Assembly (NCBI RefSeq): GCF_003469205.1
Contig: NZ_QSIN01000010.1
Location: 1-45,018, forward strand
DNA: 45,018 bases
Source: Collinsella sp. AM33-4BH
GTDB taxonomy: Bacteria > Actinomycetota > Coriobacteriia > Coriobacteriales > Coriobacteriaceae
Direction of reading: 5' to 3'
The number at the start of each line of letters is the position of its first letter. Position 1 is the stretch's first letter. A program made the position numbers and the translations under genes. Of this stretch, positions 4,463 to 42,810 are shown in pieces. The notes under the pieces are model-generated. The model saw only the letters and a list, made by a program, of their open reading frames with translations, ran no database searches and was not told the origin of the DNA.

Positions 4463-7276
4463 GTGGCTGAGAACCTAAGCAACCAGTCTGTACCCGAAGC
4501 CGCGGCGCGCGTCGCTGCCGTGGTCAACCGCCTCGTTAACCGAATCGGCTCGAATGCCGAGTCCAAGGAGCGTCTCGCCGAGATCGAGATCCCCGAGGAG
4601 CTGCGCGACAATCTGGCGCTGTTCTTGCGCCTGGAGCGCCGTGTGCTTAGCGAGTATGATCCCGAGATCGCGGACCTGTTCGACAAGATTTTGACAGCCG
4701 AGATTGTGGCCAATGCCGGCAACCCCGGTAGCCGTGCCGCTGACGAGGCCGTCGACGAGCAGGGCGTGCCCACCGCCGACGAGCCCACCGCCGTGGCATT
4801 TCGTGAAGTCGTCGATCTGATCGATAGTCTGCCGCTCGATAAGCAGCAGGTTATCGTCCGCGCCTTTACGAGCTTCTTCCACCTGGCAAACCTGTCTGAG
4901 GAGAACTACCGTGTGGCGCAGCTGCGCGAGCGTGAGGCCGGTGCGTCGACCGATACCGAGGTCGATCCCGCCAACGAGCTCACCGTCGCCTATCACCAGC
5001 TGGTGAATGAGCTGGGCGTCGAGGGCGCCAACGAGCTGCTCGGCAAGCTTGAGTTCCACCCCGTCTTTACCGCGCATCCCACTGAGGCCCGTCGTAAGGC
5101 CGTCGAGGGCAAGATTCGCCGTATCTCCAACCTGCTGGAGGAGCGTCCGCGTCTGGGTGGCTCCGACCTGGTGGAGAACGAGCGCCATATGCTGCAGGAG
5201 ATCGACGCCCTGGTGCGTACGAGCCCCATCGCGCTCAAGAAGCCCACGCCGGTCGAGGAAGCCGATACCATCATCGACATCTTCGATAACACGCTGTTCG
5301 ACGTTATCCCTGTCATCTATCGTCGTTTTGACGACTGGGTGCTGGGCGACAAGGCCGGCACCGTGCCGCCGCTGTGCCCGGCGTTCTTCCATCCCGGCAG
5401 CTGGATCGGTTCCGACCGCGACGGTAACCCTAACGTCACCGCCAAGGTGAGCCGTGAGGTCGCCGCCAAGTACTTCACCCACATGGTGCTCAAGCTCGAG
5501 GACAAGTGCCGCCGCATTGGCCGCAACCTTACGCTCGAGGCCACCTACAGCAAGCCGTCTGCCGAGCTCATCAACCTGTGGAACCATCAGGTCGAGATGA
5601 GTACCCAGTACACGGCTCGCGCCGAGCTGATTTCCGAGCACGAGCCGCATCGCGCCGTCATGCTCGTCATGGCCGACCGTCTGAACGCCACCGTGCGCCG
5701 TATCACCGACACCATGTACCACAGCGCCGATGAGTTCCTGGAGGACTTGCGCGTCGTCCAGCGCTCGCTGGCTGCCTGCGGTGCCGTCCGTGCTGCCTAC
5801 GGCCCGGTCCAGACCATCATCTGGCAGGTTGAGTCCTTCGGCTTCCACATGGTCGAGATGGAGTTCCGTCAGCACTCCGTGGTGCACGCCCGCGCCCTCA
5901 AGGATATCCACGAGAACGGTATCCATGGCGATCTGCAGCCCATGACACGCGAGGTCATCGACACCTTCCGCGCTATCGGCTCCATCCAGAAGCGCTACGG
6001 CAAGAAGATGGCGCATCGCTACATCATCTCGTTCACCAAGAGCGCCCAGCATGTGGCCGACGTCTTTGAGCTTGCCCACCTGTCCTTTGCACACGAGGAA
6101 GACGTTCCCGAGCTCGATGTGATCCCGCTGTTTGAGCAGCTCGAGGACCTCGAGGGCTGCGTCGACGTGCTCGACCAGATGCTTACGCTGCCCGTGGTGC
6201 AAAAGCGCCTTGCCCAGACCAACCGTCGCATGGAGGTCATGCTGGGCTATTCCGACTCCTCCAAGGATGCCGGTCCTACCACGGCCATGCTCGCGCTGCA
6301 CTCCGCGCAGGAGCGCATTGCCAAGTGGGCCGAGAAGAACGATATCGACCTGGTGCTCATGCACGGTCGCGGCGGTGCCGTGGGCCGTGGCGGCGGTCCG
6401 GCCAACAAGGCCGTGCTGGCGCAGCCCAAGGGTTCGGTCAACTGCTTCTTTAAGCTCACCGAGCAGGGCGAGGTCATCTTTGCCCGTTACGGCAACCGCA
6501 CGCTGGCTCAGCGTCATGTTGAGTCCGTTGCCGCCGCAACGCTTTTGCAGTCGGCCCCGAGTGTCGAGAAGACCAACACCGAGACCACGCAGAAGTTCTG
6601 GGATATGGCCGAGAAGCTCAACGCCGCAAGCCACGAGCGCTATCTGGACCTGCTGAACACCGAGGACTTTACACCGTGGTTCTCGACCGTGACGCCGCTG
6701 ACCGAGGTCGGTCTGCTGCCGATTGGCTCGCGTCCCGCCAAGCGCGGCCTGGGCGCCAAGTCGCTTGATGACCTGCGTACCATTCCGTGGATCTTCAGCT
6801 GGAGCCAGGCGCGCATCAATCTGGCCGCTTGGTACGGCCTGGGCACCGCTTGCGAGCAGCTGGGCGATCTGGACCAGCTTAAGGCTGCCTACCAGGAGTG
6901 GCCGTTCTTCCGCACGTTCATCGACAACATCGAGATGTCGATCGCCAAGACCGACCAGCGCATCGCCAAGATGTATCTGCACCTGGGCGATCGCCAGGAT
7001 CTGTCCGAGAAGGTCTTCACCGAGATGCAGCTCACCCGTAAGTGGGTCCTTGCCATCGTCGGTGACGAGTGGCCGCTGCAGCGCCGCCGCGTGCTCGGCT
7101 GCGCCGTTCGCGTGCGCAATCCCTACGTCGACGCCCTGTCCATCGCCCAAGTCCGCGCCCTTCGCGAGGTGCGTATGAACCAGGACGAGATGGCGGAGGA
7201 GAAGAAGGCCGAGTATATGAGCCTGATTCTTTCGACTGTGACCGGCGTCTCGGCAGGACTGCAGAACACGGGGTAA
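4463..7276 (+). CDS. ppc: Phosphoenolpyruvate carboxylase
   Basis: Converts phosphoenolpyruvate and bicarbonate to oxaloacetate, feeding the reductive branch of the citrate cycle and fermentation to succinate. The 937-residue length is typical. Visible motifs are TAHPTEARRK with catalytic His near 205, GSDRDGNPNVT, GYSDSSKDAG, the mobile loop LMHGRGGAVGRGGGP with His634, and the C-terminal QNTG that is characteristic of the family. The start is uncertain. GTG 4463 has GGAGG four bases upstream, while ATG 4451 has GGAGG only one base away, so GTG is preferred. A TATAAT at 4413-4418 is the likely -10 box. Long open frames on the other strand are codon-bias shadows. Confidence 0.96.
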   Translation: MAENLSNQSVPEAAARVAAVVNRLVNRIGSNAESKERLAEIEIPEELRDNLALFLRLERRVLSEYDPEIADLFDKILTAEIVANAGNPGSRAADEAVDEQGVPTADEPTAVAFREVVDLIDSLPLDKQQVIVRAFTSFFHLANLSEENYRVAQLREREAGASTDTEVDPANELTVAYHQLVNELGVEGANELLGKLEFHPVFTAHPTEARRKAVEGKIRRISNLLEERPRLGGSDLVENERHMLQEIDALVRTSPIALKKPTPVEEADTIIDIFDNTLFDVIPVIYRRFDDWVLGDKAGTVPPLCPAFFHPGSWIGSDRDGNPNVTAKVSREVAAKYFTHMVLKLEDKCRRIGRNLTLEATYSKPSAELINLWNHQVEMSTQYTARAELISEHEPHRAVMLVMADRLNATVRRITDTMYHSADEFLEDLRVVQRSLAACGAVRAAYGPVQTIIWQVESFGFHMVEMEFRQHSVVHARALKDIHENGIHGDLQPMTREVIDTFRAIGSIQKRYGKKMAHRYIISFTKSAQHVADVFELAHLSFAHEEDVPELDVIPLFEQLEDLEGCVDVLDQMLTLPVVQKRLAQTNRRMEVMLGYSDSSKDAGPTTAMLALHSAQERIAKWAEKNDIDLVLMHGRGGAVGRGGGPANKAVLAQPKGSVNCFFKLTEQGEVIFARYGNRTLAQRHVESVAAATLLQSAPSVEKTNTETTQKFWDMAEKLNAASHERYLDLLNTEDFTPWFSTVTPLTEVGLLPIGSRPAKRGLGAKSLDDLRTIPWIFSWSQARINLAAWYGLGTACEQLGDLDQLKAAYQEWPFFRTFIDNIEMSIAKTDQRIAKMYLHLGDRQDLSEKVFTEMQLTRKWVLAIVGDEWPLQRRRVLGCAVRVRNPYVDALSIAQVRALREVRMNQDEMAEEKKAEYMSLILSTVTGVSAGLQNTG

Positions 7277-7297
7277 TCGATAGCCCTGTAGTCGTCC

Positions 7298-7424
7298 GGG
7301 CCCGCCATCAGCTTACTTTTAAGCACGTCCTCGGACATGCAAGAAGCCCTCGCTGCGCACTTCGTGCGGCGAGGGTTTCTTGCGTCCTGCGGAGTGTGCC
7401 TATAAGTAAGCTGATGGCGGGCCC
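7298..7424. repeat. Palindromic element, copy 1 (conserved core, private arms)
   Basis: A 127-bp structure 21 bp past the ppc stop. Outer arms 7298-7326 and 7396-7424 are complementary with 21 consecutive matches and a few mismatches at the inner end. The 69-bp core (7327-7395) starts GTCCTCGGACATGCAA, ends TTGCGTCCTGCGGA and folds into an inner hairpin with a CTTCG-type tip. The core recurs at 9916-9982, but the outer arms do not. TAGTCGTCCG-like sequence lies before it and TGCG after it, as at copy 2. Confidence 0.85.
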
Positions 7425-7433
7425 TGCGATGTC

Positions 7434-7591
7434 CGGTCTTCGGCGGATTACTGCTGAGGAAAAGATAGCGCGCTTCGCGCACTCTGATGGGGCTTCGTGC
7501 TGCGGAATGCATTCAGAGGGAAACCCATCGGGCCCCTTCGTCCTCGGTCTTCGGGGATTAAAGCTGAGGAGAAGAATTGTGCGCTTCGCGC
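7434..7591. repeat. Imperfect direct repeat pair in the ppc-larA gap
   Basis: Two 47-bp units, 7434-7480 and 7545-7591, share CGGTCTTCGG, a GCTGAGGA block and an end hairpin GCGCTTCGCGC, with roughly 80% identity by eye. Between them, CTCTGA (7482-7487) can pair with TCAGAG (7513-7518), and GATGGG can pair with CCCATC. The rest of this 530-bp gap holds the palindromic element and a terminator; I see no gene in it. Confidence 0.6.
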
Positions 7592-7650
7592 CTCGCGTCT
7601 TATCGATTGGGATTGAGATGCATTTGGCGCTTCTCGCCTTACGACTGTTC

Positions 7651-7684
7651 CGGCCGCGGTCCTTTTTGGGATCGCGGCCGTTTT
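7651..7684 (+). terminator. Terminator distal to ppc
   Basis: Arms 7651-7662 and 7669-7680 form a 12-bp stem with one wobble, followed by TTTT. It lies 375 bp after the ppc stop, so the palindromic element and repeats may be transcribed with ppc. Confidence 0.65.
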
Positions 7685-7806
7685 GTTGTGGGTCAAATAT
7701 GAACGTTGTGTTAATGGGTCGGTAGACGGTGGTGTTTTTCGGTGAGCGGCGTATCCTTCCAACGGTTTATCTAGTGTGTCAGTTGAAAGGAAGAGGGCGC
7801 TCGTCA

Positions 7807-9084
7807 TTGTTTGAATGTGAACTGCCGTTTGACCACAAGACGTTGCATCTGGAACTCGAGGATAAGAACTTCGCGGGTGTGATGGAAGGTCACCAAAACG
7901 AGTTTAAGACTACGAAATCGCAGGAAGAGCTGGTAGAGGAGTCGCTTGCCAACCCTTATGGCTCGCCTTCGCTCGAGGAGCTTTGTGCTGGCAAAAAGGA
8001 CATCGTCATCATTAGCTCCGATCATACGCGTCCCGTTCCCTCGCGTGTGACGATGCCTATTCTGCTGCATCACATTCATGCCGCTGCGCCCGAGGCCCGT
8101 GTGCGTATTCTGGTTGCTACGGGCATGCACCGTCCGTCGACGCACGAGGAGCTCGTCAACAAGTATGGCGAGGAGATCGTTGCCAACGAGGAAATCGTCA
8201 TGCACGTCGCAACTGACGACAGCATGATGAAAAAGATCGGCACCCTGCCTTCTGGTGGCGAGTGCATTATCAACAAGATCGCTGCCGATTGCGACCTGCT
8301 GCTTGCAGAGGGCTTCATTGAGCCGCACTTCTTTGCCGGTTTCTCTGGTAGCCGCAAGTCCGTCCTGCCTGGCATCGCCAGCTACAAGACCATCATGTAC
8401 AACCACAATGGTCAGTTTGTGAACGATTCCCACTCGCGTGCCGGCAACCTGTGCCACAACCACGTGAGCGAGGATATGTTTGCCGCTGCCGAGATGGCTC
8501 ACCTTGCCTTTGTGCTCAACGTGGTGCTCAACGGCAAGCACGAGGTCATTGGCTCCTTTGCCGGCGACATCCACAAGGCGCACGAGGCCGGCTGCGACTT
8601 CGTGAAGAGCCTTGCCGGCGTTGAGCCCGTCGAGTGCGAGATTGCCATCACTACCAACGGTGGTTACCCGCTCGACCAGAACATCTATCAGGCCGTGAAG
8701 GGCATGTGCGCTGCCGAGGCCACGCTTCCCGAGGGCGGTGTGATCATCGATGTCGCCGGTTGTGCCGACGGTCACGGTGGCGAGGGCTTCTATCACAACA
8801 TCGCCGACAACGATCCGGCAGAGTTTGAGCGCGCCTGCATCGACCGTCCCAAGGACGAGACCCTGCCCGACCAGTGGACGAGCCAGATCTTTGCCCGCAT
8901 CCTGGCGCATCACCCCGTGATCATGGTCACCGACCTGTGCGATCACCAGATGCTCAAGGATATGCACATGACGCCGGTCAACACTATCGAGGAGGCGCTC
9001 AAGCTCGCCTTTGAGATGAAGGGTGCCGATGCCAAGGTTGCCGTCATTCCCGATGGCCTGGGCGTTGTCGTCGCGCAGCACTAG
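7807..9084 (+). CDS. larA: Nickel-dependent lactate racemase
   Basis: Interconverts L- and D-lactate using the nickel-pincer nucleotide cofactor. From the TTG at 7807 the protein has 425 residues, and every active-site residue known from Lactiplantibacillus plantarum LarA falls at the same number. These are Asp72 and Arg75 (SDHTRPVP), His108, His174, Lys184 (the covalent cofactor anchor, in FSGSRKS), His200 (the nickel ligand), Tyr294 and Lys298. That agreement supports the TTG start; the ribosome site is GGAAGAGGG about ten bases upstream. An earlier GTG at 7729 would add 26 unlikely residues. It is followed 49 bp later by the lactate channel gene, so the two form an operon. Confidence 0.95.
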   Translation: MFECELPFDHKTLHLELEDKNFAGVMEGHQNEFKTTKSQEELVEESLANPYGSPSLEELCAGKKDIVIISSDHTRPVPSRVTMPILLHHIHAAAPEARVRILVATGMHRPSTHEELVNKYGEEIVANEEIVMHVATDDSMMKKIGTLPSGGECIINKIAADCDLLLAEGFIEPHFFAGFSGSRKSVLPGIASYKTIMYNHNGQFVNDSHSRAGNLCHNHVSEDMFAAAEMAHLAFVLNVVLNGKHEVIGSFAGDIHKAHEAGCDFVKSLAGVEPVECEIAITTNGGYPLDQNIYQAVKGMCAAEATLPEGGVIIDVAGCADGHGGEGFYHNIADNDPAEFERACIDRPKDETLPDQWTSQIFARILAHHPVIMVTDLCDHQMLKDMHMTPVNTIEEALKLAFEMKGADAKVAVIPDGLGVVVAQH

Positions 9085-9133
9085 TGCGTGGCCCAAACGA
9101 ATCGTTTATAACCGACAAGAAAGATAAGGTTTT

Positions 9134-9865
9134 ATGCTTACCAAACTCCTCTGCGAATTCGGCGCGACGGCCCTCATGATCGTCTTTGGCGTGGGCGTGC
9201 ACTGCGATACCGTGCTCAAGGGCACCAAGTATCAGGGCTCTGGTCATATGTTTGCCATCACCACCTGGTCTTTTGGTATCTCGGCCTGCCTGTTTATCTT
9301 TGGCGGCGCCGTGTGCATGAACCCCGCCATGGTGCTTGCCCAGTGCATCGTCGGCCTGGTGCCGTGGGGCAACTGCATCCCCTTCATGCTTGCCGATATG
9401 CTCGGCGGCTTTGTGGGTGCCGTGATCGCTTGGTTTATGTATGCCGATGAGTTCAAGGCTTCCGAGGGCGTCGTCGACCCCATTGCCCAGCGCAACATCT
9501 TCTCGACCAACCCCACCACCGAGGGTACGAACTATGCCCGCAACTTCTTCTGCGAGGCCATCTGCACCTTCGTGTTCATTAGCGCCATCCTTGCTGCTGC
9601 TAGCCGTGCTGGCGAGAACGTTCTGTTGCTCGCCATCTGCGTCGGCCTGATTGTCTGGGCCGTTGGCATGGGCATGGGCGGCATCACCGGCTTCGCCATG
9701 AACCAGGCCCGTGACCTTGGTCCTCGCATGGCCTATCAGGTGCTGCCGATTAAGAACAAGGCTGACAACAACTGGAAGTATGGCCTGCTTGTTCCTGGCA
9801 TCGCGCCGTTTGTCGGTGCTATTGTGGCCGCGCTGTTTGTGCATGGTTTCTTGGGCATGTTCTAG
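9134..9865 (+). CDS. larD: MIP-family lactate channel (LarD/GlpF-like)
   Basis: Aquaglyceroporin-family membrane channel of 243 residues with six predicted helices, presumed to pass lactic acid for the racemase encoded just upstream. The first pore motif is a normal Asn63-Pro-Ala. The second is Asn190-Gln191-Ala192-Arg-Asp, where Pro is replaced by Gln (codon CAG); the rest of that block (ARDLGPR) is standard. The ATG at 9134 follows AAGATAAGG. The assignment to lactate rather than glycerol rests on the larA neighbour, not on a residue signature. Confidence 0.85.
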   Translation: MLTKLLCEFGATALMIVFGVGVHCDTVLKGTKYQGSGHMFAITTWSFGISACLFIFGGAVCMNPAMVLAQCIVGLVPWGNCIPFMLADMLGGFVGAVIAWFMYADEFKASEGVVDPIAQRNIFSTNPTTEGTNYARNFFCEAICTFVFISAILAAASRAGENVLLLAICVGLIVWAVGMGMGGITGFAMNQARDLGPRMAYQVLPIKNKADNNWKYGLLVPGIAPFVGAIVAALFVHGFLGMF

Positions 9866-9886
9866 TCGAAGGCTACATAGTTGTCC

Positions 9887-10011
9887 GCTGGCCGCATGGG
9901 GTAACTTCCCAGCGCGTCCTCGGACATGCAAAAAGGCTCGCTGCGCACTTCGTGCGGCGAGCCTTTTTGCGTCCTGCGGAATGCGCTGGGAAGTTACCCC
10001 ATGCGGCCAGC
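9887..10011. repeat. Palindromic element, copy 2 (conserved core, private arms)
   Basis: A 125-bp structure 21 bp past the larD stop. Outer arms 9887-9915 and 9983-10011 are perfectly complementary over 29 bp. The 67-bp core (9916-9982) matches that of copy 1 at both edges and at the tip. Its inner stem GCAAAAAGGCTCGC pairs perfectly with GCGAGCCTTTTTGC; relative to copy 1, changes on one side are matched on the other. The remaining 154 bp to the end of the TetR gene show no gene. Confidence 0.88.
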
Positions 10012-10165
10012 TGCGGGATCTTTGCTGCGCTCGAGCAAGCAACCCAACATATATCTGAATTTGGATGGGAGGGGCTTGTTGCTGATAGGGGCGTTGAGCT
10101 GTTGTTGACACTTTGGGATGCGTGGCGCCCTAGGTTGGGGTGATGCTTTGGGATGAGCTTCTTAC

Positions 10166-15270: not shown

Positions 15271-15311
15271 ATGCGCCGAGATTGTGAGGGCATGGGATGA
15301 CCGGGCGTCGC

Positions 15312-15511
15312 GGAAAGTGCGTCCCGGAATCTGCGTCCAGAACGGGTCGCGCTTTCCCAAAGGGGGTCCTCTGGGAAAGCGCGACCCAGAATTCGGCAAA
15401 ATAATGGGACACAGTTTCCGGTTGAGCTGTCTAACGGAAACTGTGCCCCAGAATGAGCGCTCAAAACGGGCCGGGCTTTCCACAGCAACTGTCTGGCGGA
15501 AAGCCCGGCCC
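15312..15511. repeat. Array of related hairpins between convergent aspS and lacI genes
   Basis: Three consecutive hairpins share one plan: GGG, six bases, TTTCC, a 12-16 base loop, GGAAA, six bases, CCC, then AGAAT or similar. Unit A pairs 15344-15359 with 15372-15387 (16 bp, perfect), B pairs 15406-15420 with 15435-15449 (one mismatch), and C pairs 15468-15481 with 15498-15511 (14 bp, perfect). Half of a fourth unit (GGAAA, six bases, CCC, GGAAT) sits at about 15312-15330. The variable six-base part differs between units but stays paired. The last unit ends seven bases from the lacI stop codon. Confidence 0.8.
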
Positions 15512-15517
15512 AGTTTC

Positions 15518-42738: not shown

Positions 42739-42810
42739 AGTTGCGGTGGAATACGGACTGTTTTGGCTGTCAAAGGCCTTATCTACTCCGTATTCCACCG
42801 CAACTTTTTT
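42739..42810 (+). terminator. Long-loop terminator after the GltD-like gene
   Basis: Perfect 19-bp stem (42739-42757 with 42787-42805) and TTTTTT at the end. The 29-base loop is unusually long for an intrinsic terminator. Confidence 0.8.

What the first reader, a model, noticed from the sequence alone, without database searches (positions are those of the whole stretch)
7298..10011. Palindromic element with a conserved covarying core and unrelated but perfectly complementary outer arms
Two copies lie 21 bp after the stop codons of ppc and larD (7298-7424 and 9887-10011). Their 67-69 bp cores are nearly identical at both edges and at the tip, and the inner stems differ by paired changes that keep base pairing. 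The 29-bp outer arms have no similarity between copies, yet within copy 2 they are perfectly complementary and within copy 1 nearly so. TAGTYGTCCG before and TGCG after are shared. A simple repeat insertion does not explain private arms. Options are an element that creates an inverted duplication of its target, a structured RNA under selection for pairing only, or an unusual terminator.
Basis: seen in the sequence. Interest (0 to 1): 0.78.

Follow-up and report, generated by a model that had tools for sequence, protein, structure and literature searches.

The report
Gene-end hairpin family in Collinsella relatives
The two palindromes belong to a family of long hairpins that sit just after the stop codons of genes in Collinsella and related bacteria; their arms change freely yet stay matched, while a small uneven loop inside them hardly changes, which suggests an unrecognised signal at the ends of messages.

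Summary
The nearest held genome (G001) has 17 places, two of them weak. A short form of the same design (CGTCCTC - small hairpin - TGCGGAATG inside long paired arms) matches model R2 in 60 of 65 sampled genomes of the window's family. Copies lie a few tens of nucleotides after a stop codon in one orientation (15 of 17 in G001; 18 of 20 picked short forms elsewhere), and pta and Fe-alcohol-dehydrogenase genes carry them in different genera. This fits a 3'-UTR element of the upstream transcript better than random insertion. The private but matched arms are best explained by homogenisation at the DNA level (template switching within the palindrome): in long-form arms G.T and A.C mismatches are about equally common, paired changes are at least as common as one-sided ones, and in two genomes one half has become the inverse of the other, erasing the loop. 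Elsewhere the loop is nearly invariant, so selection seems to guard it. IS3-family elements sit at the hairpin tip in three genomes. Target duplication on insertion is not supported. What reads the loop is unknown; a role in forming or protecting mRNA 3' ends is my best guess.

The parts
7298..7424 (+). Copy 1, long subtype, 21 nt after the ppc stop
   Evidence: R1 117.5 bits for 7303-7419
7298..7326 (+). Copy 1 left arm (27 of 29 complementary to 7396-7424)
7327..7340 (+). Copy 1 left core GTCCTCGGACATGC, with GTCCTC 7327-7332 and the AT bulge 7337-7338
7388..7395 (+). Copy 1 right side of the loop, TGCGGAGT
7396..7424 (+). Copy 1 right arm
9887..10011 (+). Copy 2, long subtype, 21 nt after the stop of the MIP-family gene
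   Evidence: R1 121.9 bits for 9892-10006
9887..9915 (+). Copy 2 left arm (29 of 29 complementary to 9983-10011)
9916..9929 (+). Copy 2 left core GTCCTCGGACATGC
9975..9982 (+). Copy 2 right side of the loop, TGCGGAAT
9983..10011 (+). Copy 2 right arm
7489..7538 (+). Orphan right half of a different family element (the kind found whole after ppc in 8 relatives)
7465..7480 (+). Part of the flank that occurs twice; second copy at 7576-7591
   Evidence: (D6)
7651..7690 (+). Separate canonical terminator-like hairpin (7651-7680) and T-rich tail downstream of copy 1
   Evidence: 6 terminator-like sites found, 3.3 expected in shuffles

Best explanation
A family of 3'-UTR stem-loop elements of Collinsella and its family. 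Shown: the element follows stop codons in a fixed orientation, is kept at the same genes between species and at some between genera, and has a nearly invariant asymmetric loop (C-GTCCTC / TGCGGAAT-G) between freely changing helices. Well supported: in the long form the arms stay complementary because the palindrome is repeatedly corrected at the DNA level, one half templating the other. Inferred: the loop is kept uneven by selection because it is read in the transcript of the upstream gene, most likely in forming or protecting the mRNA 3' end, by a protein or nuclease not identified here.
For: Position and orientation: 15 of 17 places in G001 start 14-41 nt after a same-strand stop; 77 of 93 distinct elements, plus 10 at the 99-codon grcA gene by my reading of the flanks; 18 of 20 short forms picked from two other genera and one other family. 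Same genes in different genera: pta, Fe-ADH. Loop: invariant in all 19 rows of A3 (partly by choice, since rows were found by that pattern) and all 16 of A1 on the left. DNA-level correction: distinct arm mismatches G.T 19, A.C 15, other 10 in 76 elements; 51 paired against 43 one-sided changes on shortest steps; whole-half inversions in G018 and G024, in opposite directions; one-base deletion in both arms (L021/L046). DNA hairpin exposed: IS3-family insertions at the tip.
Against: No expression data; transcription is assumed from position. At the hairpin base of the window copies there is no T-tract, and ppc has another terminator. G018 and G024 have lost the asymmetry at larD, so the loop is not essential there. 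Short-form arms show G.U 18 to A.C 5, as RNA selection would give, though folding favours G.U. Two of 17 places in G001 and 2 of 20 short forms do not follow a nearby stop.
Confidence: 0.6

Rival explanations
1. A REP-like miniature mobile DNA element, spread by a Y1/RAYT transposase that recognises the folded single strand and its uneven loop.
For: Multi-copy, intergenic, hairpin with a conserved asymmetric tag; near-identical cores at several loci and inner stems exchanged under the same arms; Y1_Tnp (PF01797) proteins in 36 of 42 genus genomes.
Against: R1 matches near only 1 of 30 Y1_Tnp loci looked at (L167). Three of the six genomes without PF01797 (G015, G023, G039) still have R2 matches. 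Fixed distance and orientation after stop codons are not expected of free insertion. Presence at ppc and larD is constant among near relatives.
Confidence: 0.13
2. Plain rho-independent terminators that happen to share an old apical sequence; no special reader of the loop.
For: Place after stop codons; A-tract/T-tract inner stems such as AAAAAGGCTCGC..GCGAGCCTTTTT in copy 2; T-rich tails in some short forms (L339, L345, L150, L155); the same IS also hits terminator-like hairpins.
Against: Many long forms lack a T-tract both at the base and in the inner stem; a canonical terminator follows further downstream of ppc, also in G013, which lacks the element; terminators need no invariant uneven loop.
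Confidence: 0.17
3. A DNA-level site: the extruded hairpin or cruciform is the functional form, read by a recombinase, nuclease or chromosome protein; the place after genes is only where it is tolerated.
For: Perfect arms without G.U preference, tip-targeted IS insertions, joints near hairpin tips and stacked halves.
Against: Orientation follows the upstream gene; all the DNA signs are also expected of any long palindrome, whatever it is for.
Confidence: 0.08
4. An element that makes an inverted duplication of its target when it inserts.
For: The G013 ppc site without the element keeps TCGATTCCCTTCG, like the outer end of one arm of the element found there in other genomes, TCGGGTCCCTTCG.
Against: Only 10-13 nt, and a deletion scar would look the same; arms resemble each other between loci; outer base motifs are conserved too.
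Confidence: 0.02

Closest known systems
REP sequences, GTAG and CGTC superfamilies (PMC3733652; abstract and passages seen)
   Same: Multi-copy hairpins, mostly downstream of coding regions, thought partly to act as RNA; a CGTC tag beside the stem.
   Different: REPs are 20-40 bp with 8-9 bp stems (CGTC) and constant stems per family; here the stem letters are free, the arms are 24-35 bp and the uneven loop is the constant part. That paper's passages name no Coriobacteria.
Rho-independent (intrinsic) terminators
   Same: Hairpin shortly after the stop codon; T-rich tails in some short forms.
   Different: No T-tract at the base of the window copies; a conserved asymmetric internal loop; a separate terminator downstream of ppc.
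Quasipalindrome correction by template switching (PMC8794818; abstract and start of introduction seen)
   Same: Inverse copying of one arm from the other, giving paired changes without G.U intermediates.
   Different: A mutational process, not an element; here it acts on a repeat family whose internal asymmetry is kept against it.
IS1397/ISKpn1 in palindromic units (PMC1525189; passages seen)
   Same: IS3-family elements inserting in palindromes.
   Different: Here the targets include many terminator-like hairpins, the described family being one among them.

Membership tests
CGTC REP | Unpaired CGTC tag at one end of the hairpin | tested here: inconclusive
   CGTC precedes the inner stem, but the short forms were found with a pattern that demands it, and its TCC can pair with GGA.
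CGTC REP | Stem of 8-9 bp beginning with AT, loop 4-5, CCA tail (PMC3733652) | tested here: not met
   Inner stems of the short form are mostly 3-5 bp and begin with G; no CCA tail at the conserved right side.
RAYT-mobilised REP (REPtron) | Transposase gene flanked by the repeats | tested here: not met
   30 of the listed PF01797 loci scanned; one R1 match, beside an IS200-size frame.
Intrinsic terminator | GC-rich stem followed at once by a T-tract | tested here: inconclusive
   Not met at the base of the two window copies; T-rich in some short forms; inner stem of copy 2 ends in TTTTT.
Template-switch-corrected palindrome | Inverse copying of one half onto the other | tested here: met
   G018: 53 nt perfect on each side of a 15-nt centre; G024: right half inverse of left.
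Families of Rfam 15 | Match above the gathering score | tested here: not met
   Window 7200-10100: 9 matches up to E 5, each far below its gathering score. Collinsella-1 (RF01700 by PMC2864571) is not among them; I did not check that this release holds it.
3'-UTR RNA element | Transcribed with the upstream gene and functional as RNA | not testable with these tools
   No expression data; position and orientation only.

The most novel reading that the evidence does not exclude
The uneven loop is the recognition site of an undescribed RNA-binding or RNA-cutting factor that shapes the 3' ends of many mRNAs across this bacterial family, while the hairpin around it is rebuilt again and again by DNA self-templating, so that selection guards a deliberate asymmetry against a process that tends to erase it.
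Probability: 0.35. Interest if true: 0.78.

Novelty: new variant of a known kind. Interest (0 to 1): 0.6.

Why it matters
It offers a natural set in which two usually confounded causes of covariation can be separated: DNA self-correction of a palindrome and selection on an RNA structure. It warns that near-perfect covariation in a bacterial hairpin need not mean RNA-level selection for pairing. It also points to a possible shared 3'-end signal in a group of common gut bacteria whose RNA biology is little known.

Tried and rejected
Target duplication on insertion: rejected as the main account. RAYT mobilisation: no consistent flanking. Viral carriage: the long pattern gave 0 stretches of viral contigs; the 18 stretches with the short pattern lack complementary arms and look like chance. 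Rfam lookalikes (mir-1662, Thr_leader) are far below cut-off. I first took one search's 20-26 matches per genome as copy number; one search shows that a palindrome matches on both strands. No model was built from alignment A2, whose outer parts aligned poorly. In one search, 39 right halves and 1 left half came out as orphans; six rows are larD artefacts of the opposite strand and many are the same place held twice, leaving 16 right halves at ppc (window and 12 genomes) and 4 at grcA. They may stem from about three events, so I claim no direction. In one search at most 16 candidates per genome were scored, so its counts are lower bounds.

Searches for an earlier description listed none that I recognised. 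Six papers were fetched and seen only as abstract or passages.

Full report
1. The thing itself. Two palindromes lie 21 nt after the stop codons of a PEP carboxylase and a MIP-family gene. Arms pair at 27 of 29 and 29 of 29, and share 15 of 29 letters in register between copies, more than shuffles give (P about 0.003). Folding z-scores are -14.1 and -15.6.

2. A family. The window's own assembly is not held; G001 is the nearest. The pattern GTCCTCGGACATGC..GCGTCCTGCGG is in 22 of 43 genomes of the genus. Covariance model R1, from 16 sequences, matches 34 of 43. In G001, merging strands leaves 17 places, two of them weak. In named species genomes the long pattern gave 52 stretches, each titled Collinsella, among them C. 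aerofaciens and C. bouchesdurhonensis.

3. What is constant. The first helix after GTCCTC varies in pairs (GGAC/GTCC, GGGC/CCCC, GACCA/TGGTC, GCAC/GTGC). GTCCTC on the left and TGCGG on the right stay. The pattern CGTCCTC N9-39 TGCGGAATG occurs in 50 of 297 genomes of the order, with 7 matches to the reversed control; some of the 50 are chance matches in coding sequence without arms (L140, L144, L146, L158). The real short form has a small apical stem on a long hairpin. Model R2, from 19 short forms, matches 86 of 297 genomes of the order at E <= 0.001, 60 of 65 in the window's family by my count of the table, and 8 of 198 in a sample of the phylum, five of them in that family and three weakly elsewhere. 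A further motif stands at the base in many copies (CTCCCACCGG .. CCTGCGTTTACC).

4. Where it sits. In G001, 15 of 17 places start 14-41 nt after a same-strand stop of an open frame of about 100 codons or more; L090b and L094 do not. Over the loci then held, 77 of 93 distinct elements have such a stop within 120 nt, 10 more follow the 99-codon grcA by my reading, 6 do not; 26 of 93 also have a converging stop. Of 20 short forms picked from G186, G217 and G132, 18 lie 34-55 nt after a stop; some are orthologues of each other. Upstream genes in G001 include oppF-like, pta, P-type ATPases, lactaldehyde reductase (Fe-ADH), asd, thrB, grcA, an aldolase, ilvE and a ferredoxin/TPP-enzyme protein. The groEL label of L095 is my reading of its C-terminus. 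pta and Fe-ADH recur in genus g3, Fe-ADH also in G132 of another family; the G001 Fe-ADH copy (L093) is degenerate.

5. Why the arms match. In A1, 98.1% of cells pair, 32 of 49 pairs change on both sides (153 cells), and the covariation score is 0.577 against 0.196 shuffled. In 76 distinct elements, kept only if at least 19 of 24 arm pairs were Watson-Crick, there are 1777 Watson-Crick, 19 G.T, 18 A.C and 10 other cells; 45 of 76 have no mismatch. Guided by folding, long arms give distinct G.U 19 to A.C 15, short arms 18 to 5. So G.U preference is absent in the long form but may exist in the short. Along shortest steps between similar arms there are 51 paired, 43 one-sided and 2 other changes. 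Two relatives at one locus differ by a one-base deletion in both arms (L021, L046). In G018 the larD element is perfect for 53 nt on each side of a 15-nt centre, the left loop being the inverse of the right. In G024 the right loop is the inverse of the left. These are marks of template switching within a palindrome (cf. PMC8794818). That the loop stays uneven in nearly all other copies argues for selection on it.

6. Turnover. Of 30 ppc loci returned for 43 genomes, 21 near relatives carry three kinds of element: 12 as in the window, 8 of another kind, 1 with the same core and other arms. G013 has none, L131 ends before the site, and seven distant loci show none in the 230 nt printed. In the window and 12 genomes, right halves of other elements lie downstream between copies of the flank, three in a row in G005. 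At grcA, four genomes have a short element followed by an old one without its left arm. At larD, 20 of 20 genomes looked at have the element, with two kinds of arms and exchanged inner stems. I take this as breakage or copying errors at palindromes plus exchange between strains; that is inference.

7. Insertion sequences. An IS3-family element (NF033516 above cut-off for the second frame) sits at the tip of family elements at larD in G024 and G021, with only its left end on the contig in G009, and at one more locus in G024. Of 22 regions taken from the matches, both IS ends were found in 20; 19 of 20 have a 3-4 bp duplication, and 17 of 20 a hairpin score of 14 or more, against 0.7% of random positions.

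8. Function. A canonical terminator lies downstream of ppc (7651-7680) and a similar sequence in the G013 locus without the element.

9. Known kinds. REPs and intrinsic terminators are nearest; tested features of CGTC REPs and of RAYT association were not met. PMC8040213 (passages) reports palindromic candidate RNAs and one Collinsella leader, and PMC2864571 (passages) lists Collinsella-1; I could not compare their sequences, so an earlier unlabelled sighting is possible.

Noticed in passing
L310-L330 (G024, G021, G018, G001): An IS3-family element inserts at hairpin tips: 17 of 20 copies sit at the centre of an inverted repeat, mostly terminator-like, with a 3-4 bp duplication in 19 of 20.
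   Followed up: partly
L322-L330 (G018, G001): Several of those target hairpins are near-copies of one another (CCACCACAAAGG..CCTTTGTGGTGG), perhaps a second repeated terminator-like family.
   Followed up: no
window 15311-15516: A row of several separate hairpins on the minus strand side, with a weak R1 match at 15311-15420 (28.4 bits).
   Followed up: no
window 42739-42805: A perfect 19-nt inverted repeat with 29 nt between the arms, overlapping the start of an open frame.
   Followed up: no
G015, G017, G023, G025, G039, G043: The six genus genomes without a PF01797 match; three of them (G015, G023, G039) still match R2.
   Followed up: partly
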